From: a virus
Strand: one strand, 5' to 3'
Length of the DNA stretch: 64,000 nt
IMG/VR virus record: IMGVR_UViG_3300026455_000008
Span: 1-64,000 of that record
Shown here piece by piece: positions 13,557-59,635 of the stretch; the first letter of the stretch is position 1, and each line of letters opens with the position of its first letter. The position numbers and the translations under genes are program-made. The notes below the pieces were generated by a model. It worked only from the letters and a program-made list of their open reading frames with translations. It had not been told where the DNA came from and did no database searches.

Positions 13557-14102
13557 ATGGTGCGAAAATTAAACGGTAACGGTCTAACCCTCATAAAATC
13601 TTTCGAGGGGTGCAAATTAGAAGCCTATCCAGATCCTGCATCCCCTTTGGCCATAGAGATGAGAAGGCCGCCGAACGCAAGAAGGCCTGGGTGGGAGTCG
13701 CTGTCGGGTTCACCTTGGACCATCGGGTGGGGTTCGACCGGCTTAGACACGTTCAACCTGACACCAGACGGAAAACCTAGCCAGATAGGTCCGGGCACCA
13801 AGTGGACGCAGGCTCAAGCGGATGAAAGAAAATCTGCGGATCTTGATAAGTTTTGCTCAGACGTTTCTAAGCTGCTGAAGATTGAGGTGACTGATAACCA
13901 GTTCGCCGCGCTGGTAAGCTTCGCGTACAACGCAGGCGTGGGCAATTTGAAAAGCTCTACCTTACTTAGACTGGTCAACCAGGGCAAGCATCTTGAAGCG
14001 TCAAACGAGTTTCTCAGGTGGACCAAGGCTCAGGGCAAAGAGCTTCCGGGCCTAGTCAGAAGGCGCGAAGCCGAGCGCCGCCTTTTCCTCACGCCCGGCT
14101 GA
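13557..14102 (+). CDS. Endolysin, GH24 lysozyme (muramidase)
   Basis: 181 residues. The T4/P22 lysozyme signature is present: LIKSFEGCKLEAYPDP places the catalytic Glu17 eight residues before Asp26, and WTIGWGST supplies Thr55. A ~28-residue insertion (PLAIEMRRPPNARRPGW...) separates Asp from Thr, as in a sub-branch of phage lysozymes. LVSFAYNAGVGNLKSSTLLR is the conserved C-lobe helix. There is no signal peptide, so a holin is needed; candidates are at 35014 and 35306. It hydrolyses the MurNAc-GlcNAc bond of peptidoglycan at lysis. The ~100 nt upstream hold no gene. Confidence 0.93.
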   Translation: MVRKLNGNGLTLIKSFEGCKLEAYPDPASPLAIEMRRPPNARRPGWESLSGSPWTIGWGSTGLDTFNLTPDGKPSQIGPGTKWTQAQADERKSADLDKFCSDVSKLLKIEVTDNQFAALVSFAYNAGVGNLKSSTLLRLVNQGKHLEASNEFLRWTKAQGKELPGLVRRREAERRLFLTPG

Positions 14103-17245: not shown

Positions 17246-17752
17246 ATGAGCAAGCTATCACAACACGCCGCAGTCGTCCAAGTCACCCAAGCCCACTTCG
17301 GTGAGCGCTTCATCCCCGGCTCCGACATCAAAGAGATCGCGACCAAGTCCGACAAGCAAGTCATCGCCACCAAGATCGCCGAGATGATGCTCGAAGGTGC
17401 GGTCGAGCTGAGCGATGGCGCCCGAGCCAAGTACGGCGAGTCCGCCGAGACCCTAACGAGCAAGTACGTGGTCGGCATGGTCACCAACTGGTTCAACAAG
17501 TCCAAGGAGCTTAACGGTGGCGTCAAGTACGAAGCCAAGAATCCTGGCTCGCGGTTCGGTGCCGGTGATGCGCAGCTGAAAGAGCTCAACCTCCTCCGCA
17601 AGCAGCTCGTCGAGATCGGCAACGAAGACGGCGTCGCGCGGTGTGACGAAGCCATCGCGCAGCGCAAAGAGTTCCTGCGCGAACAGAACCAGCCGAAAGT
17701 TGAGATCAACGCAGACAACCTCCCAGCTAACCTTCGCGATCTAGTCGGTTAA
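17246..17752 (+). CDS. Paralog family NWFNK/LNGG, copy A
   Basis: 168 residues. It shares with the genes at 21050 and 37500 a helical N-domain (here VVQVTQAHFGERFIPGSDIK ... MLEGAVELSD) and the block YVVGMVTNWFNKSKELNGG, and with 21050 also KYEAKNPGSRF, QLKELNLLRKQL and DEAIAQRKEFL. The Trp-Phe-Asn-Lys and LNGG(x)KYEAKNPGS motifs look like a conserved binding surface; no catalytic signature is seen. Strong own promoter. I associate the motif with uncharacterised proteins of other large phages from memory only. Confidence 0.75.
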   Translation: MSKLSQHAAVVQVTQAHFGERFIPGSDIKEIATKSDKQVIATKIAEMMLEGAVELSDGARAKYGESAETLTSKYVVGMVTNWFNKSKELNGGVKYEAKNPGSRFGAGDAQLKELNLLRKQLVEIGNEDGVARCDEAIAQRKEFLREQNQPKVEINADNLPANLRDLVG

Positions 17753-20951: not shown

Positions 20952-21049
20952 ATGATGATGAAATTAAAATAATTGCTGCTGAGTTTATCCGATCCTATCT
21001 TTAACCATCGGGCAAATGTTATTGCCCAGCAAACCAAGGAGTGTTATCC

Positions 21050-21565
21050 ATGGCTATGAAGCAACGTGAAGCAGTCTACCAAGTCACCACCGAAGTCCTC
21101 GCCGCCAAAGGCATCGAGTTCATGCCCACCGTCACCGACGTGCGCGACCTCGTCAACTCCGAGATCCGCTCGGAGATCACCGACAAGATCGTGACCATGT
21201 TCCAAGAAGGTCAAGTGGAGTTCAAGTCTACCGAGTCCAACCAGGAGAAGATGTCCGACACCAAGAAGCTCCGCAGCTACGTCACCGGCCTCATCACCAA
21301 CTGGTTCAACAAGGATACGCAGCTCAACGGCGGCGCCAAGTACGAAGCCAAAAACCCCGGTTCCCGCTCACCCGACGCCCAGCTGAAAGAGCTCCGCATC
21401 CTCAAGAAGCACCTCGAAGCCAAAGGTGACGCTGACGGTGTCAGCCGCTGCGACGAAGCGATCGCCCAGCGGATCGAGTTCCTCAAGGCAGAGAAAGCTC
21501 CAACTTCCCTCCCAGCCGTAGACCCAGACAACCTCCCCGACTTCCTGAAGGACCTGGCTGTCTAA
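21050..21565 (+). CDS. Paralog family NWFNK/LNGG, copy B
   Basis: 171 residues, MAMKQREAVYQVTTEVLAAK... It aligns with the 17246 copy over its whole length (YVTGLITNWFNKDTQLNGG, KYEAKNPGSRSPDAQLKELR, DEAIAQRIEFLKA) and its N-terminus matches the 37500 copy (REAVYQVTTEVL against KEAVYQATLEVL). It lacks membrane or catalytic motifs. Own promoter with a long leader, and a 10-bp hairpin after the stop, so it is probably abundant. Function unknown. Confidence 0.75.
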   Translation: MAMKQREAVYQVTTEVLAAKGIEFMPTVTDVRDLVNSEIRSEITDKIVTMFQEGQVEFKSTESNQEKMSDTKKLRSYVTGLITNWFNKDTQLNGGAKYEAKNPGSRSPDAQLKELRILKKHLEAKGDADGVSRCDEAIAQRIEFLKAEKAPTSLPAVDPDNLPDFLKDLAV

Positions 21566-30035: not shown

Positions 30036-31121
30036 ATGACGCTTCTAAGCGATAAGTTAAAAAGACGCATTGTCATTGCCGTAACTAGTGAAAAGTACGG
30101 CAAAGAGCTTATCGATGCTATTGAGGGCATACATGAAGCTGTCGACACAGTGTTTGAAGGCATCGAACAACCTGTTGGTCTTAAAACCCCTAGCGCAGTT
30201 GGTCTGTCGGTTAACGATGCAAGCCGCACACTGACATTGACTCCGCTAACTGGCTCATATACGTACTACGTTGCTGGCAAAGAGATTGAGATTAAGTCAA
30301 CACTGACAGCTCAGTGGTCAGCTGCGCACGGACCGAATTACTTCTATCTAGACGAGAACAGCGAACTAAAGGTCGCGCAAACCTTTATGGAAGACATCAT
30401 AACCAAGTACGCATTTGTGTCGATCGTGTACTGGGATCCGACCGCCGGCAAGCACATCTACTTTGCCAACGAGCGCCACGGCATACACATGGGCGATTAC
30501 ACCCATCTGTATCTGCACAGGACTCGCGGTGCTGCATTTGACTTCGGCTGTAAATTAGTAAATTTTGTAGTCGACGGCTCTGGATCCTTAGCAACAGAAG
30601 CGCAGTTCGCAGCACAATCCGGCCAAATCTGGGATGAGGATATTAAGCTCCCAATATCAGCACAAACAACGTTTCCAATCTTTTATCGCTCTGGTGCTAC
30701 AAATTGGAAGCGCAAAGATCCAGATGCTTATCCAGTAATTTATTCTGGAAAAGAAGGCTATGCGGGAACAACGCTTCCGTATAATAGTTTTGACGGCACC
30801 AACTGGACTTTAACGCCGGTCGACGCAAATAAATTCGTTCTGGTTCACGTGTTTGCTACTAATGATATCGACTATCCGTATGTTGGCATTCAGGGCCAAG
30901 CACAGTATACTTCAAAGTCCGAAGCTCGCGACGGGGCGGTTGCCGAGATTAAAGCGCTGTCTGGTTTGCCTGTAGCAGAGTTCTGTCCTGTTGGTTCTGT
31001 TATCTTTCAAACCTCCGCCGCATACACCAACGCGCCGAAGGCAAAAATCGTGTCAACTTCAACCGGCGCTAACTACGAAGATCACCGAGCGACACTGCTA
31101 CGGCCGGGCTCGCTGGCATAA
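30036..31121 (+). CDS. Tail fibre-like / virion adhesion protein
   Basis: 361 residues with TTAGGAGGAATTGTC before the ATG. N-terminal helix (KLKRRIVIAVTSEKYGKELI), then beta-rich repeats typical of fibre or capsid-decoration proteins (LSVNDASRTLTLTPLTGSYT, YYVAGKEIEIKSTLTAQWSA, GPNYFYLDENSELK), and HIYFANERHGIHMGDYTHLY then RTRGAAFDFG. It is likely a receptor-contacting or surface protein; the family call is pattern-based. It is encoded far from the tail module, on the opposite strand. Confidence 0.55.
   Translation: MTLLSDKLKRRIVIAVTSEKYGKELIDAIEGIHEAVDTVFEGIEQPVGLKTPSAVGLSVNDASRTLTLTPLTGSYTYYVAGKEIEIKSTLTAQWSAAHGPNYFYLDENSELKVAQTFMEDIITKYAFVSIVYWDPTAGKHIYFANERHGIHMGDYTHLYLHRTRGAAFDFGCKLVNFVVDGSGSLATEAQFAAQSGQIWDEDIKLPISAQTTFPIFYRSGATNWKRKDPDAYPVIYSGKEGYAGTTLPYNSFDGTNWTLTPVDANKFVLVHVFATNDIDYPYVGIQGQAQYTSKSEARDGAVAEIKALSGLPVAEFCPVGSVIFQTSAAYTNAPKAKIVSTSTGANYEDHRATLLRPGSLA
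31091..31101 (-). repeat. Recurring 11-mer (inverted copy)
   Basis: GACACTGCTAC within the last codons of the fibre-like gene, 33 nt before the CCGAATC box at 31124. Confidence 0.5.
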
Positions 31122-31551: not shown

Positions 31552-31574
31552 CCGAATCAATTTATTCCTCAATG
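31552..31574 (+). promoter_or_regulatory. CCGAATC box, class II
   Basis: TTCCGAATCAAT then TATTCCTCAATGGAGG: CCTC can pair with the GAGG of the RBS. The start codon is 32 nt from the box. No good TATAAT. Confidence 0.45.
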
Positions 31575-31583
31575 GAGGTTCTT

Positions 31584-32198
31584 ATGACAAACAAATATGT
31601 TATTTTAGCCGCACTGTGCAGTGCAGGAACGTCATATGCGTACGACGACCACGCGTCTTGGTCCCAGAGCAGAGGCTCATACAGCGGATCTTACCAGTAC
31701 ATCACAGAAACAGAAGCTTGGCAGTCAAACGCTACTCTCTTATCAAAAGACCCTTACGGCAAGGAAACCGTCATGTCCACCCCGTACAAAGGGTTGGGTT
31801 TCCGCGTCGGAGTTGGAACTGAGTTAGCCAGGTTCGTGCGGTTCACTGCGTACTCATCTTCGCGCGATCTGTCTAATTCGCTTACCGACTCATTAAGATC
31901 CTACCAAATCGGTGGCGAAACCGCAGTGTCTTTCTACGGTCCCGTACTTAATCTCCAGTTTGGGTTAGGTCTGTTTGCAAGCAGGCAGCACCAGCAGAAA
32001 CCCAACGAGGGACGAACGTTTATTGGCTCAGGTTTCACAGGGTCGGTTGGTTTTGAAAAGTTTATTTCACAGAAAGCATCTGTAATGTTTACCGTGCGGG
32101 GTCAGCAAGAAACGCTTAGACCTGATGAAAGCGAGTCCCGCGACGTGCTCGGCGTATCGTCCACCGGCGCCGCTTTCGCTCTTGTCCTCTGGATGTAA
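31584..32198 (+). CDS. Exported outer-membrane-barrel-like protein
   Basis: 204 residues. The chosen ATG (after GGAGG) gives a clean signal peptide MTNKYVILAALCSAGTSYA, probably cut before YDDHASW. The mature part alternates polar and aromatic/hydrophobic residues in ~10-residue strands (GLGFRVGVGTELARFVRFTA, GPVLNLQFGLGLFA, TGSVGFEKFISQKASVMFTV) and ends GAAFALVLWM. This is the pattern of an 8-strand OmpX/OmpA-type barrel. A phage-encoded barrel could block receptors or exclude superinfecting phages; that role is inference. Confidence 0.6.
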   Translation: MTNKYVILAALCSAGTSYAYDDHASWSQSRGSYSGSYQYITETEAWQSNATLLSKDPYGKETVMSTPYKGLGFRVGVGTELARFVRFTAYSSSRDLSNSLTDSLRSYQIGGETAVSFYGPVLNLQFGLGLFASRQHQQKPNEGRTFIGSGFTGSVGFEKFISQKASVMFTVRGQQETLRPDESESRDVLGVSSTGAAFALVLWM

Positions 32199-33674: not shown

Positions 33675-33998
33675 ATGAAAAACTTTGATAAGTACATAAT
33701 TATTCTAATGTTTGCTGATTACACTGTGACAATTGCGCAGTTAGTTTTTGGTAAACTTGTACCCCTTGAAAGGTACAGAGGGCGCCCAATATACGGCAGG
33801 TGGGTGTATGATTTTGGATTTGTGTTCTCGGTGGATGAGCCTTTCCATATACATTACAACCCGATGTATTTCATCACGATCGAGTCTGCAAGGCGATTCA
33901 TAGACTCAGACGAAAAGCAGCAATTTGAATTCGAGTGCAGAAAACTGACTAAAGTCATGAAAAGAATGAAAGTTGTAAAAAGTGAATATTACCGCTAA
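33675..33998 (+). CDS. Small protein with hydrophobic N-terminus
   Basis: 107 residues, MKNFDKYIIILMFADYTVTI..., hydrophobic first 30 residues (possible uncleaved signal), then aromatic/basic sequence (RYRGRPIYGRWVYDFGFVFS) and a basic helix (RKLTKVMKRMKVVKSEYYR). Function unknown. Confidence 0.5.
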   Translation: MKNFDKYIIILMFADYTVTIAQLVFGKLVPLERYRGRPIYGRWVYDFGFVFSVDEPFHIHYNPMYFITIESARRFIDSDEKQQFEFECRKLTKVMKRMKVVKSEYYR

Positions 33999-34251
33999 AA
34001 TCCTGTTCACCTCCATGCTAATTGCGGCAGGATGCGCGCACCAAGAGCCGCACCGACCAGCGGTAAACACTTTTACCTGCCCGAGGCCTGCAATTAAAAC
34101 ATTAAAAGAAGCCTGGTCGAAGGAAGACGAGAGCATGATCCCTCATTTTAACGAGGGTTGCGCGAGGCATTTCACAAAGGACCACTGCCCTGTAAGGGTT
34201 TTGAAATCAAAAAAGTTGTCATATCGAGTGACGTGCAAGAAAGTCAGGTAA
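33982..34251 (+). CDS. Small lipoprotein
   Basis: 89 residues from a GTG start overlapping the previous gene by 17 nt. MNITAKILFTSMLIAAGCAH is a type II signal with lipobox AAGC (Cys18). The mature part has four further Cys (FTCPRP, NEGCARH, DHCPV, RVTCKK), probably two disulfides. Periplasmic lipoprotein, function unknown. Confidence 0.6.
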   Translation: MNITAKILFTSMLIAAGCAHQEPHRPAVNTFTCPRPAIKTLKEAWSKEDESMIPHFNEGCARHFTKDHCPVRVLKSKKLSYRVTCKKVR

Positions 34252-34473
34252 ATGTTCACAGATCTCATACACAACTCCTCTCTCACCGAGAAAATCAGAC
34301 TTTTCGCTTGGTTTGTGTTGGCTGTCTATATGCTCGCTAAGTTCTCCTTCTGGATCTTTGATATCCGAAACAATTCATTAATAGAAAATTCATGCCGTCT
34401 TGGGGGCGGTACGAAAACACAAATGTTCGTGGTAGTCGACGGCGAGGTAATAGATATATGTTTAAGACATTAA
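34252..34473 (+). CDS. Single-pass membrane protein
   Basis: 73 residues, starting directly after the previous stop. Helix IRLFAWFVLAVYMLAKFSFW is transmembrane; the C-terminal part has a small beta segment (TQMFVVVDGEVIDICLRH). Overlaps the next gene by 16 nt. Confidence 0.45.
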   Translation: MFTDLIHNSSLTEKIRLFAWFVLAVYMLAKFSFWIFDIRNNSLIENSCRLGGGTKTQMFVVVDGEVIDICLRH

Positions 34474-35021
34474 CGATTGTGTCTGCATTTTTATTGACCG
34501 CCTGCGGCGCGGAGGAAACTCTCCACGTTTCCCGCGGTCAGCGAGACATATCGTTTGACCGCCACCTAGAGTCGGCAGTGGATGCGCCAATCAGACCGCA
34601 TCTCGTTGAGTTTGTTGAGTTCTGCAAACTTTCCAGCCAGAGCGATTCCGATACTTGCCTGGCAAACCTTCCAAAACTTAAAAACGTGCGCCTTAAATCA
34701 GGCGTGCTCGACCCAGCAAATCCGACCGTGATCGGCCTGTGTGAGATGGCCATAGACAGAACCGTAACTATACGGTCTGACTTCTTTGACCACAGATCGA
34801 TAGCTTTTAAAGCGCTAGTCTGGCATGAGCTCGGTCACTGTTTATTAGACCTCGACCACATTGACGGTACAAATAATCACATAATGAACGCGAACCTACC
34901 GTCAAGTAAAGTACTACAGTCGTCTTGGGAAATCTTTATCAAAGATTTCTTTGAATCAAAAGTAAAATTATCTCTGCTTGGCTTTTTGGTATCTGACTCT
35001 TTCGAGGAAATTCATGAGTGA
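34458..35021 (+). CDS. Metzincin-like zinc metallopeptidase lipoprotein
   Basis: 187 residues. MFKTLTIVSAFLLTACGAEE is a lipoprotein signal (lipobox LTAC, Cys16). Residues ~136-147 read HELGHCLLDLDH, an HExxH motif with a third His seven residues on, one residue longer than the standard HExxHxxGxxH, followed by NNHIMNAN, which resembles the metzincin Met-turn. The preceding ALVW supports a zinc-protease active-site helix. It would be anchored in the outer membrane and act in the periplasm. Substrate unknown. The non-standard third-His spacing means activity must be tested. Confidence 0.65.
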   Translation: MFKTLTIVSAFLLTACGAEETLHVSRGQRDISFDRHLESAVDAPIRPHLVEFVEFCKLSSQSDSDTCLANLPKLKNVRLKSGVLDPANPTVIGLCEMAIDRTVTIRSDFFDHRSIAFKALVWHELGHCLLDLDHIDGTNNHIMNANLPSSKVLQSSWEIFIKDFFESKVKLSLLGFLVSDSFEEIHE

Positions 35022-35316
35022 TGATGCGCCTGATCTGAGAGTTGAACGCGTAAAATCTGCACTTAACTCAACGGTGGGGCGTTTTTGCTTCACAACCGCA
35101 GTAACCCTGGCGGCAACTTTCCTGATGAAAGAGTCTCTTGAAAAAGAACCTAACGCATTGAAATGGTTATTGATTACGATATGGGTCGACGTTGCAGCGT
35201 ACTTTTTCGGATACATGAACGGATACAAAGGCGGAGTTTTTGGACTGTATGACGCCCTTGTCGATTCTAGCAAAAATGATATAATAGGCGGTAAGGGAGA
35301 CCGCCATGAAGAGTAA
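35014..35316 (+). CDS. Two-span membrane protein, holin candidate
   Basis: 100 residues, MSDDAPDLRVERVKSALNST... The acidic/charged N-terminus is followed by VGRFCFTTAVTLAATFLMK and, after a loop, ALKWLLITIWVDVAAYFFGY, then a Lys/Asp-rich tail. Size and topology suit a class II or III holin. It overlaps the next membrane gene by 11 nt, a typical holin/antiholin-style pair. The endolysin is elsewhere, so this is only a candidate. Confidence 0.45.
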   Translation: MSDDAPDLRVERVKSALNSTVGRFCFTTAVTLAATFLMKESLEKEPNALKWLLITIWVDVAAYFFGYMNGYKGGVFGLYDALVDSSKNDIIGGKGDRHEE

Positions 35317-35527
35317 ACTATCGTTTATACTAACGCTTATATCCGTTATTGGTATATTTATCCTCGCGTGGTTCAAGAACATCGATATTCAAATGCTTTT
35401 ACCATCGGTTCTCGGCATATACATTATCGGAAGAACCACGACGAACGTTTCTACAGCTTGGGCTGCATCCAAGGACCCTCAGGCAGACACAATCAAAGCC
35501 TGTGAGATGATTGATAAAAAAGAATAG
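35306..35527 (+). CDS. Two-span membrane protein, holin candidate
   Basis: 73 residues: KLSFILTLISVIGIFILAWF, then MLLPSVLGIYIIGRTTTNVS, ending in a charged tail (KDPQADTIKACEMIDKKE). Basic start, short loop, acidic/basic tail as in small holins. It pairs with the gene at 35014. Confidence 0.45.
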   Translation: MKSKLSFILTLISVIGIFILAWFKNIDIQMLLPSVLGIYIIGRTTTNVSTAWAASKDPQADTIKACEMIDKKE

Positions 35528-35815: not shown

Positions 35816-36032
35816 TGCAGTAACTGCAATTCAGAAAGCTAAAGACGATCTTTATTATCGCGGCCACTCCTTGCAGAAAAGCGAAGATCTTTCGACTCAA
35901 ACTTCTGAAGATTCTGCCTCCGAGCAAGAACCGTCTTTAAACGAAGATGATTCAGTCGAGGATGACGATCACGCAGAAGACGATCAAGATTTAGACGAAT
36001 TTCTATATCCGTATGGAGTTACCTTATGGTAA
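35745..36032 (+). CDS. Acidic small protein
   Basis: 95 residues, MYQIRYKDPMTGTILETQAH..., a small alpha/beta domain followed by an extremely acidic tail (EDDSVEDDDHAEDDQDLDEF). CAGGAG before the ATG. Function unknown. Confidence 0.55.
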   Translation: MYQIRYKDPMTGTILETQAHSLTDAVTAIQKAKDDLYYRGHSLQKSEDLSTQTSEDSASEQEPSLNEDDSVEDDDHAEDDQDLDEFLYPYGVTLW

Positions 36033-36463
36033 GGTCGATATTAGTTGCGACGCTGGTAGCGTCAGCCATAAAAGCTGAAGCGCGAGATCTCTATCTCCTA
36101 GAACCCAGAGATATCTACATTGACGCCTTTAAATACGAGTCGATGCACGATCCGTATCTCGCGCCGATAGATAAAGATCTTCTTTACGGTGCGGCTTTTA
36201 ACACGGATTTCAATGTCTTTCGCTACGGAAACATAGCTTTACATTGGAAAAATAGATTACATTTTGACCAGGTCGGATCAAGTGGGCACATAAAGCACGC
36301 TGGCTGGGAGTATGAACTTGGGTTGCCGCTCTGGATAGATAAGGGAAAGCCTAAAATAGAACTCTTCAAGCAGCACCATAGTCGACACGTTCTTGAAGAA
36401 GTTAGAGATACACACTTCCCTGTATACGACCGGATCGGCGTAAGAATAAGGTTGCTGCCGTGA
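36026..36463 (+). CDS. Exported protein
   Basis: 145 residues. MVRSILVATLVASAIKAEA is a signal peptide. The mature part is beta-like and aromatic (RDLYLLEPRDIYIDAFKYES, GNIALHWKNRLHFDQ, GWEYELGLPLWIDKGKPKIE) with several His at the end (FKQHHSRH). It could be a small barrel or periplasmic enzyme; no family recognised. It overlaps the upstream stop by 7 nt. Confidence 0.55.
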   Translation: MVRSILVATLVASAIKAEARDLYLLEPRDIYIDAFKYESMHDPYLAPIDKDLLYGAAFNTDFNVFRYGNIALHWKNRLHFDQVGSSGHIKHAGWEYELGLPLWIDKGKPKIELFKQHHSRHVLEEVRDTHFPVYDRIGVRIRLLP

Positions 36464-37490: not shown

Positions 37491-37499
37491 GTGATAAAG

Positions 37500-37793
37500 A
37501 TGCTTTCTCAAAAAGAGGCCGTATACCAGGCCACGTTAGAAGTGCTAACTCAAGCAAACCTGAAAACTAACGGTCTTCCAGTTTCACAAGTCATTCCCAG
37601 AGAGCTTAGGAAAATGGTTACTAGCAAAGTGCTAGAGCTTGTCAAGCAGGGTCAGGTTACCTTTAAGGGCACGGCTTCCAACTCTATGAAACACAAAGAT
37701 CCCAGTAGAATGTCTGCGTATGTTAGCGGGTTGGTTTCTAACCACTGGAAACGCGACCCAAGATTAAACGGATCTCAAGCAACAGAAAAATGA
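37500..37793 (+). CDS. Paralog family NWFNK/LNGG, copy C (short)
   Basis: 97 residues, MLSQKEAVYQATLEVLTQAN... It aligns with the N-terminal ~100 residues of 21050 (KEAVYQATLEVL, LVKQGQVTFKGT, YVSGLVSNHWKRDPRLNGS) but stops just after the LNG motif, lacking the KYEAKNPGS and C-terminal helices. It is either a trimmed paralog or the minimal functional domain. It overlaps the next gene by 4 nt. Confidence 0.7.
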   Translation: MLSQKEAVYQATLEVLTQANLKTNGLPVSQVIPRELRKMVTSKVLELVKQGQVTFKGTASNSMKHKDPSRMSAYVSGLVSNHWKRDPRLNGSQATEK

Positions 37794-49779: not shown

Positions 49780-50517
49780 ATGTTTACCAAAACCCTAACC
49801 GCAATCTGCGCAGTCCTGGCTCTGTCGTGCAACTACGAGCCACCTGTTAACAGTGGGATTGTTGAGTCCGCCAAAAATGTTACAACCTCTGATAGAGAAT
49901 CAAAAGAGCTTGGCGATTACGCCCTCCTGATGATGCGGATTGTTAACGCAAATCTTTCTGATGTCAGGAGAAATGTCGTTGCGCGCAGCATCGTGAACGT
50001 CGCCAACGATATCTTCTCATCCCTGGACGAAAAGAAGCAATTTGTGGTGATGATCGCTATTGAGTCCAAATTCAATACCGATGCCAAATCGTCAGCTGGC
50101 GCACTCGGGCTTACGCAGATCATGCCTCAGTATGCCCGAGAATTCGGCACAGCGTGTGGTATAAAAGACTTAAGGGATGAAGACATGATTCACCCGGACG
50201 TCAACCTGATACTTGGGGCGTGTCGTTTCAAGGCGCTACTTGACGCTTTCAACGGTCAACCGGTACCTGCATTGGTAGCTTATAACGCAGGATTGGCATC
50301 TAACCAGTTAAAACAACTACAGTCTTTGAGAGAAATAACAAACACGGAGACTGCGTCATACGTAGTGAAATGGATTTATGTCAAAGATCAAGCGGACAAG
50401 CAAACCGAAAAGCGCAAAGTCCGGGTCAAAACCGCCAGTGGATCTGAGCAAGGCTCGAAGAAAGAAGATATACGCGCGCAAGAAGGTAATAAAAAACAGG
50501 AAGAATCTGGGACTTAA
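49780..50517 (+). CDS. Lipoprotein lytic transglycosylase (SLT domain)
   Basis: 245 residues. MFTKTLTAICAVLALSCNYE is a type II signal (Cys17). SLT motifs follow in order: VMIAIESKFNTDAKSSAGAL (catalytic Glu95 and the GxxxxSS/AGALGL motif), GLTQIMPQYA, then LVAYNAG (motif III). It cleaves peptidoglycan to 1,6-anhydro-muropeptides from the outer membrane. The C-terminal 50 residues are Lys/Gln-rich and overlap the next gene. It probably acts in envelope modification rather than final lysis. Confidence 0.88.
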   Translation: MFTKTLTAICAVLALSCNYEPPVNSGIVESAKNVTTSDRESKELGDYALLMMRIVNANLSDVRRNVVARSIVNVANDIFSSLDEKKQFVVMIAIESKFNTDAKSSAGALGLTQIMPQYAREFGTACGIKDLRDEDMIHPDVNLILGACRFKALLDAFNGQPVPALVAYNAGLASNQLKQLQSLREITNTETASYVVKWIYVKDQADKQTEKRKVRVKTASGSEQGSKKEDIRAQEGNKKQEESGT

Positions 50518-58918: not shown

Positions 58919-59635
58919 ATGAAAAAGATCGCGTCATTTCTAATGTGCATTCCGCTGTTCTTGGGGGCAAACGCTGCCGCGGCGACTACTCGCCACGTGG
59001 TTCCTAAAGGTGAAAGAACTTTTTATATCACAGGGCAAATCGACCCATCTGCTCTACCTGTAGCAAATGGCATCGAAAGGGTGTCTGCTGCAAGTTCAGA
59101 TCCAATTCATTTAGTTATTAACTCTCCCGGTGGCATGGTGCTTGTGGGTTTTCAGGTAGAGCAGGCGATGGATATCGCACGCAGCCGTGGAGTTAAAATT
59201 GTGTGTACTGTTGGCGTTATGGCGGCAAGCATGGCTTTTCAGATCCTGTCACACTGCGACGAGCGGTACGCACTAAAGAAAACCCTTTTGTTATTTCATC
59301 CAGCTCGAGTGATTGTTAGAGATCCGATGACTGCCGACCAAGCACTCATGGTTGGCCACGAACTACGAAAAGTAGACAAGCGAGCCGACAAAGAAAACAC
59401 CGAGATGATGGGCGTAAAAGATCCAAAATGGCTTGAGCTGCACAATCGCAACGAAACCCTTTGGGTCGCAGAGGATCTCGTGGAAGAGACGCCTAAAAAA
59501 TGGCTCAAGATCGTAGATGAAATTGAAACGCCAGATGGCATTTTTAATCTTGAAACTAGAACTGGTTCTAGCTCTAATCTAAATGAAAAATCTCAAGAAC
59601 TTAGAAATCTACCGTGGATCATAGTGAACGACTGA
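58919..59635 (+). CDS. Exported ClpP-like protease
   Basis: 238 residues. MKKIASFLMCIPLFLGANAA is a signal peptide, cut probably near AAA|TT. ClpP-fold features follow: PIHLVINSPGG, VGVMAASMAFQIL with Ser104, LLLFHPARV with His127, an acidic C-region and EDLVEETP. An exported ClpP-type peptidase is very unusual in a phage; it would work in the periplasm, where the cytoplasmic Clp ATPases are absent, so it probably cleaves unfolded or exposed peptides on its own. CGGAG leader. Confidence 0.75.
   Translation: MKKIASFLMCIPLFLGANAAAATTRHVVPKGERTFYITGQIDPSALPVANGIERVSAASSDPIHLVINSPGGMVLVGFQVEQAMDIARSRGVKIVCTVGVMAASMAFQILSHCDERYALKKTLLLFHPARVIVRDPMTADQALMVGHELRKVDKRADKENTEMMGVKDPKWLELHNRNETLWVAEDLVEETPKKWLKIVDEIETPDGIFNLETRTGSSSNLNEKSQELRNLPWIIVND

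What the first reader, a model, noticed from the sequence alone, without database searches (positions are those of the whole stretch)
34458..35021. Lipoprotein with a metzincin-like zinc site and shifted third His
HELGHCLLDLDH has the HExxH but the third His is one residue later than in standard metzincins, with an IMN segment after it resembling a Met-turn. It is exported and lipid-anchored. A phage-made outer-membrane protease could strip receptors or attack periplasmic defence.
Basis: partly seen in the sequence, partly recalled or inferred. Interest (0 to 1): 0.55.

Follow-up and report, generated by a model that had tools for sequence, protein, structure and literature searches.

The report
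Phage-encoded lipid-anchored zinc protease
A phage gene encodes a small, probably exported and lipid-anchored protein that looks like a zinc protease with a slightly stretched metal-binding motif, and the same stretched motif turns up in many other phage sequences and in some bacteria, so it is an overlooked protein family whose job in infection is untested.

Summary
ORF 34458-35021 encodes a 187-aa lipoprotein-like protein with HELGHCLLDLDH...HIMN; the third His is one residue later than in HEXXHXXGXXH. It is no quirk: 37 of 37 bacterial relatives found by profile (E<1e-10, seeds left out) have that late His, 0 of 37 the standard one, and 37 of 37 an xM after it. A DNA pattern for the late-His motif met at least 119 stretches of viral contigs. 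Against venom metzincins the profile shows one extra residue right after HELGH, with His and Met in line (3 printed alignments). AlphaFold2 gives a confident core (mean pLDDT 86.2) whose 50 listed structural matches are matrixins or snapalysin. The gene is under purifying selection and groups with phage sequences only. Best reading: an envelope-anchored, metzincin-like protease of a family that the libraries searched touch only at its edge, in phages, Bdellovibrionota and Saprospiraceae. It fails the strict metzincin motif, hence a new variant. Receptor stripping is possible but untested; help with lysis is about as likely. Zinc binding, activity, location, timing and substrate are not shown.

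The parts
34458..35021 (+). metzincin-like lipoprotein, 187 aa (stop included in the coordinates)
   Evidence: homologues
34458..34505 (+). signal peptide with lipobox L13-T14-A15-C16; C16 would be lipidated
   Evidence: sequence
34740..34742 (+). codon of Cys95 (GxC); probable disulfide partner of Cys128
   Evidence: invariant column in A3, not forced by the selection of rows; lost together with Cys128 in L067 and L068
34824..34859 (+). zinc motif HELGHCLLDLDH (H123, E124, H127, C128, H134)
   Evidence: alignment to metzincins
34878..34889 (+). HIMN 141-144, Met-turn-like
33675..33998 (+). membrane-type protein, first gene of the tight gene run
   Evidence: 39% identity in L002, same order
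33982..34251 (+). small Cys-rich lipoprotein-like protein, 89 aa, two genes upstream
   Evidence: 56% over 57 aa in L002; function unknown
34252..34473 (+). small membrane-type protein, 73 aa, overlaps the start of the protease gene by 16 bases
   Evidence: 45% in L002
35014..35316 (+). small membrane-type protein, 100 aa, overlaps the end of the protease gene by 8 bases
   Evidence: 49% in L002
35306..35527 (+). small membrane-type protein, 73 aa
   Evidence: 84% in L002; TrbC-like hit below its cut-off

Best explanation
A phage-made, lipid-anchored zinc protease of metzincin type with a one-residue-longer active-site segment (HEXXHCxL[often G/N/D]xxH plus Met-turn). Steps: (1) Sec export and lipidation at Cys16 (inferred from the lipobox); (2) likely outer-membrane placement, as residue 17 is Gly, not Asp (enterobacterial sorting rule, recalled; the host is unknown); (3) a Cys95-Cys128 disulfide (inferred from conservation and joint loss); (4) H123, H127 and H134 hold zinc, Glu124 activates water, Met143 supports the site (inferred from homology); (5) it cuts host envelope proteins during infection (inferred). 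Its use is most likely either to help the cell burst or to keep further phages out; the data do not separate these. The first three rivals below are uses nested within this reading, so their odds overlap with it.
For: Bacterial relatives found by profile: late His 37 of 37, standard place 0 of 37, xM after it 37 of 37, Cys after HExxH 36 of 37 (limits: the profile was built from rows that all have the late His, and only the best-scoring loci were fetched). In 108 viral ORFs taken by a pattern that did not ask for Met or GxC, 100 have xM within 60 residues and 100 have the upstream GxC. Profile against PDB sequences: venom metalloproteinase E 0.00023, and all 3 printed venom alignments have one residue extra right after HELGH. 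Model pLDDT 86.2, pTM 0.77, helix 115-130, then a loop to H134; the 50 listed VIA-align rows are matrixins or snapalysin (a few by recall of the entry, not by title), best Z 8.6, 3.5 A over 113 residues. Family member L132 passes Pfam Matrixin (39.8 bits, cut-off 24) and matches MMP-12 at Z 9.3, 2.6 A over 107 residues. dN/dS 0.097. Phage-only group on the tree. Gene run conserved in L002.
Against: The window protein passes no Pfam or NCBIfam cut-off and has no PHROG match at E<=0.1. Foldseek alone finds no significant PDB match (best E 0.032; for L132 best E 0.010, selecase), and Z near 8 can be a common arrangement by the tool's own note. The strict metzincin motif is not met. A weaker relative, L068 (E 9.6e-10), has HELAHDVLNLDD, no His at either place. 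Zinc geometry was not measured. Simple patterns for lysozyme, transglycosylase, VanY and LysM found nothing near the gene in relatives (no positive control was run), which weakens a lysis-cassette reading. No activity, timing or substrate data.
Confidence: 0.72

Rival explanations
1. Use A, superinfection exclusion: the anchored protease removes or shaves the phage receptor so that later phages cannot adsorb.
For: Lipobox; phage-only group under purifying selection; encoded in a run of membrane-type and lipoprotein-like genes.
Against: No receptor, host or adsorption data. Relatives are common in bacterial genomes (52 of 191 sampled genomes of the Bacteriovoracaceae phylum at E<=1e-10, seeds included, my count), where exclusion is not an obvious need. 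One relative (L008) has a chance-level hit to the Cor exclusion family, E 0.15, which is not evidence.
Confidence: 0.28
2. Use B, lysis helper: it cuts proteins that tie the outer membrane to the cell wall, so that the endolysin (13557-14102) can burst the cell.
For: Precedent: in Listeria a phage-derived secreted metzincin (Mtz) cleaves its partner lipoprotein, and the pair raises sensitivity to phage lysis and wall-acting agents (PMC8235301, abstract and passages). Small membrane-type genes flank the gene. The phage has an endolysin (phrog_7).
Against: The endolysin gene lies about 20 kb away. Simple lysis patterns found nothing near the gene in relatives, apart from one NlpC-type pattern match (no positive control). 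Listeria is Gram-positive and its Mtz has the standard motif.
Confidence: 0.28
3. Use C: an enzyme of the bacterial hosts taken up by phages for some other gain, such as protein digestion, with no role in adsorption or lysis.
For: Common in the sampled Bacteriovoracaceae-phylum genomes, up to 3 matches per genome; ordinary chromosomal neighbours by eye in L024; at least 3 phage/bacterium changes forced on the tree.
Against: The window protein lies among 17 phage rows only (95/95), so it is no recent pick-up (few columns, many open forks, root unknown).
Confidence: 0.2
4. Asp-zincin reading: D133, at the standard third place (HEXXHXXGXXD), is the ligand and H134 is not.
For: D133 stands where Asp-zincins have Asp (definition in PMC3890501, passages).
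Against: That place is Asp in only 13 of 37 profile-found relatives, while His at the next place is 37 of 37.
Confidence: 0.04
5. A dead zincin fold used as a binding protein or inhibitor.
For: No activity has been shown for any member found here.
Against: HExxH, late His and Met kept in 37 of 37 profile-found relatives; dN/dS 0.097.
Confidence: 0.08

Closest known systems
Matrixins, Peptidase_M10 (PF00413), metzincin subclan MA(M)
   Same: Predicted fold (Z 8.6 window protein, 9.3 L132), HExxH, His as likely third ligand, Met-turn; L132 passes the Pfam cut-off
   Different: One extra residue after HELGH; Leu instead of Gly at motif position 8; no Matrixin hit for the window protein; lipid anchor; Cys95/Cys128 pair
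Snapalysin (Streptomyces)
   Same: Small size; structural match Z 8.3, 2.8 A over 109 residues
   Different: Third ligand Asp and no lipid anchor in snapalysin (recalled)
Putative phage metallopeptidase, PF18894
   Same: L107, L132, L141 and L146 pass its cut-off, of 10 members; 60 of 79 A3 rows match at E<=1
   Different: Window protein 12.2 bits against 23.7
Selecase (MJ1213, M. jannaschii)
   Same: Profile match E 0.001; HELLHLKYGKYH also has His at the 12th place; best Foldseek hit of L132, E 0.010
   Different: Mini-gluzincin type without export (recalled); which residue binds zinc there was not checked
Listeria phage-derived Mtz with TIMP-like lipoprotein (PMC8235301, abstract and passages)
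   Same: Exported metzincin of phage origin with Met-turn; acts on the envelope
   Different: Standard HEXXHXXGXXH/D motif, not itself a lipoprotein, Gram-positive host

Membership tests
Metzincins, MA(M) | HExxH | tested here: met
   H123-E124-L-G-H127
Metzincins, MA(M) | third His at HEXXHXXGXXH spacing | tested here: not met
   His one residue later in the window protein and in 37 of 37 profile-found relatives
Metzincins, MA(M) | Gly at position 8 of the motif | tested here: not met
   Leu in the window protein and in 37 of 37 relatives; G, N or D at position 9 in 23 of 37, Asp in the window protein
Metzincins, MA(M) | Met-turn after the third His | tested here: met
   HIMN; xM in 37 of 37 relatives and 100 of 108 viral ORFs; sequence only, geometry not seen
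Metzincins, MA(M) | metzincin fold | tested here: inconclusive
   50 listed VIA-align rows all metzincins, best Z 8.6, 9.3 for L132; Foldseek best E 0.032
Matrixin PF00413 | curated Pfam cut-off | tested here: not met
   No hit for the window protein at E<=5; L132 passes with 39.8 bits
PhageMetallopep PF18894 | curated Pfam cut-off | tested here: not met
   12.2 bits against 23.7
Asp-zincins, MA(D) | conserved Asp at the third place (HEXXHXXGXXD) | tested here: not met
   Asp in 13 of 37 relatives at that place
Lipoproteins (signal peptidase II) | lipobox and short hydrophobic signal | tested here: met
   LTAC at 13-16; lipobox pattern in 77 of 101 viral ORFs with a 5' end, starts chosen to fit it
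Outer-membrane lipoproteins | outer-membrane location | not testable with these tools
   Gly at +2 only
Zinc proteases | zinc binding and proteolysis | not testable with these tools
   none

The most novel reading that the evidence does not exclude
A distinct, so far uncatalogued subclass of metzincin-like proteases with the motif HEXXHCXL[G/N/D]XXH and a Cys pair that locks the active-site helix, carried both by many phages and by predatory-type bacteria, and used by phages as an anchored envelope protease to control the entry of rivals or the bursting of the cell.
Probability: 0.35. Interest if true: 0.72.

Novelty: new variant of a known kind. Interest (0 to 1): 0.5.

Why it matters
If active, it shows that the metzincin zinc site tolerates a fixed one-residue extension, and that a family common in phage contigs and in Bdellovibrionota is only grazed by the main family libraries. 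It gives phage biology a concrete candidate for envelope proteolysis during infection, testable with single-residue mutants.

Tried and rejected
Rejected: the late His as a slip or one-off. Asp133 as third ligand. The three plasmid tblastn hits as relatives: their HELAHC or HEVGHC proteins have no His at the 12th place. A lysis cassette: patterns for GH24 lysozyme, SLT, VanY and LysM gave 0 hits and an NlpC-type pattern 1 among genes within 8 positions of the family gene in 129 loci (simple gene calling, no positive control). Small membrane-type genes are hardly more common within 2 genes (46 of 467) than 5 or more genes away (47 of 561), nor are lipoprotein-like ones (22 of 467 against 18 of 561). 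No neighbour recurs at one fixed place in many loci.

Led nowhere: tblastn and megablast against the named-phage collection (no match); the single-protein genome-contig scan (27 pattern stretches, no relative); the alignment-based viral scan (only L001 and L002 again); a profile comparison with the protein of 36026-36463 (no match). Motif in print: 'helghc' 0 papers; the forms HEXXHXXXGXXH and HEXXHXXXXXXH 1 paper, which gives it as the general metzincin motif, apparently a misprint; phage metallopeptidase, metalloprotease or metzincin phrases 2 papers, listing only; metzincin with third histidine, insertion and zinc-binding motif 4 papers, listing only. In Bdellovibrio (listing; PMC12546842 passages) the protein Bd3137 is called similar to zinc metalloproteases; whether it belongs here was not tested. 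Zinc-site distances: no coordinates available.

Papers seen: PMC8235301 abstract and passages; PMC3890501 passages; PMC5557861 passages; PMC5491558 one passage; PMC12546842 passages; all others in search listings only.

Rows dropped before counts: one search leaves out three seed loci (L031, L032, L061) and hits weaker than E 1e-10 (L068 without a third His at either place, L069 with it at the 12th). A3 (79 rows) holds 22 of the 25 rows of A2 (L017, L022, L027 left out), 52 of the 69 'good' rows (picked for lipobox, Met and both ends) and 5 rows without the lipobox pattern; so in A3 the motif, Met143 and Cys16 are largely forced by selection and only Cys95 is not. The 108 ORFs include fragments and chance frames (such as L090, L119, L153).

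Full report
What is there. The window is positions 1-64000 of a viral record of 109,902 bases with a tail sheath, an endolysin, a PhoH-like protein and a peptide deformylase. The gene at 34458-35021 encodes 187 aa with a lipoprotein signal (LTAC16) and HELGHCLLDLDH followed by HIMN. It is the only match in the record. It sits in a tight run of genes, 33675 to 35527, which touch or overlap by up to 17 bases; phage contig L002 has them in the same order with 39-84% protein identity, one of them matched over 57 residues only.

Is it real. L001 (95% identical) and L002 (41%) keep HELGHCLLDLDH and HIMN. Between the window and L001 there are 24 synonymous and 9 non-synonymous changes, dN/dS 0.097 by my own script.

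How wide is the family. A DNA pattern for HELGHCxLxxxH followed by ATNATGAA gave 15 viral stretches (L001 and L002's contigs among them) and 9 bacterial ones. In the newly fetched loci 108 ORFs carried the motif; 100 had xM within 60 residues after the His, 100 had the upstream GxC, and 77 of 101 with a 5' end had a lipobox by my pattern. With a profile of 25 rows, 91 of 191 sampled genomes of the Bacteriovoracaceae phylum match at E<=0.001 and 52 at E<=1e-10 by my count, seeds included; for the Saprospiraceae phylum 15 of 296 and 7. Many of the weaker matches cover only the helix region and may be other zincins. The first phylum is Bdellovibrionota by record title and tree labels, though one seed in it, L028, is titled Epsilonproteobacteria.

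The late His. The DNA patterns forced it, so I checked it on relatives found by profile: 37 of 37 have His at the 12th place, 0 of 37 at the 11th, 37 of 37 have xM after it, and position 8 is Leu in all 37. Limits: the profile came from rows with the late His, and only the best-scoring loci were fetched. A weaker relative, L068, has no third His at either place, and L069 has it at the 12th. Position 9 is G, N or D in 23 of the 37 and in 58 of 69 viral rows. Against venom metzincins, all 3 printed alignments show one residue extra just after HELGH, with His and Met in line. The plain account is an active-site segment longer by one residue, with the turn and the His moved along. In the AlphaFold2 models the helix runs to residue 130, four before H134, and in L132 to the residue before Gly109, three before the late His.

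The Cys pair. C95 is invariant in the 79 rows of A3 and was not forced by row selection; C128 was. Among profile-found relatives, L067 (HELGHI) and L068 (HELAHD) lack both the Cys after HExxH and one about 31 residues before it; L065 and L066 keep the helix Cys with the upstream one at -33; L069 lacks the helix Cys but has a Cys at -31 in a doubtful frame. This fits a disulfide and does not prove it.

Fold. Window protein: mean pLDDT 86.2, pTM 0.77, core mostly near 95. The 50 listed VIA-align rows are matrixins or snapalysin, out of 465 chains pre-ranked by Foldseek; best Z 8.6 at 3.5 A over 113 residues, snapalysin 8.3 at 2.8 A over 109. Foldseek alone is not significant against the PDB (best E 0.032); among viral models it finds an uncharacterised Caudovirales protein at 2.1e-6. 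L132: pLDDT 84.8, MMP-12 at Z 9.3, 2.6 A over 107 residues; its best Foldseek hit is selecase at E 0.010. Zinc geometry was not measured.

Libraries. The window protein reaches no cut-off in Pfam or NCBIfam and has no PHROG at E<=0.1. Of ten members scanned, L132 passes Matrixin, L129 scores its cut-off of 24.0, and L107, L132, L141 and L146 pass PF18894; none of the seven passes a cut-off. So the libraries touch the family's edge.

History. In a tree of 116 rows (72 from viral contigs, 44 bacterial; 136 columns, many forks open, bootstrap not settled) the window protein lies on one side of a branch with 17 viral rows and no bacterial one (95/95); at least 3 changes between phage and bacteria are forced. 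'Viral' rests on IMG/VR's own calls. The host is unknown: the tail sheath is nearest to Myxococcus phage Mx1 (31.4%), the ribonucleotide reductase to Tenacibaculum and Cellulophaga phages.

Function. From sequence and computation: gene, motif, conservation, selection, likely fold. Inferred: export, lipidation, outer-membrane place, zinc, proteolysis. Open: substrate and use. The Listeria case (PMC8235301) shows that a phage-derived metzincin can weaken a cell envelope, there through a partner lipoprotein; receptor shaving is as likely on present evidence. I give each about 0.28.

Verdict. Observation confirmed; interpretation partly supported; it looks as if it works like a metzincin but fails the strict motif, hence a new variant of a known kind.

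Noticed in passing
window 58919-59635: Signal-peptide-bearing ClpP/SppA-like protein (best PHROG head maturation protease, E 2.9e-12); an exported ClpP-like protein also forms a cluster in 4 loci around the metallopeptidase gene.
   Followed up: partly
window 49780-50517: Lipoprotein-like protein with transglycosylase, endolysin and lytic tail protein PHROG hits.
   Followed up: partly
window 31572-32198 and 36026-36463: Two exported proteins that look by eye like small outer-membrane barrels; no family above cut-off in Pfam or PHROGs; the second has relatives in 2 viral contigs.
   Followed up: partly
window 33982-34251: 89-aa Cys-rich lipoprotein-like protein two genes upstream, conserved in L002; could be a partner of the protease, untested.
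   Followed up: no
window 30036-31121: 361-aa protein without a PHROG; tblastn hits in L001, L002, L128 and L187, and part of a cluster of 7 loci near the metallopeptidase gene, one member collagen-like (cluster members not inspected one by one).
   Followed up: partly
window 17246-17752, 21041-21565, 37491-37793: Three small proteins with shared wording, apparently paralogues within one phage (by eye).
   Followed up: no
G013 (L013); L157; L100 with L149; L127 with L139: Some viral contigs carry two copies of the metallopeptidase family.
   Followed up: no
L024 2340-3197: In a Bacteriovoracaceae genome a matrixin-like gene with the standard spacing (HEVGHGLGLFH...SVMTY) lies two genes from the late-His lipoprotein.
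   Followed up: no
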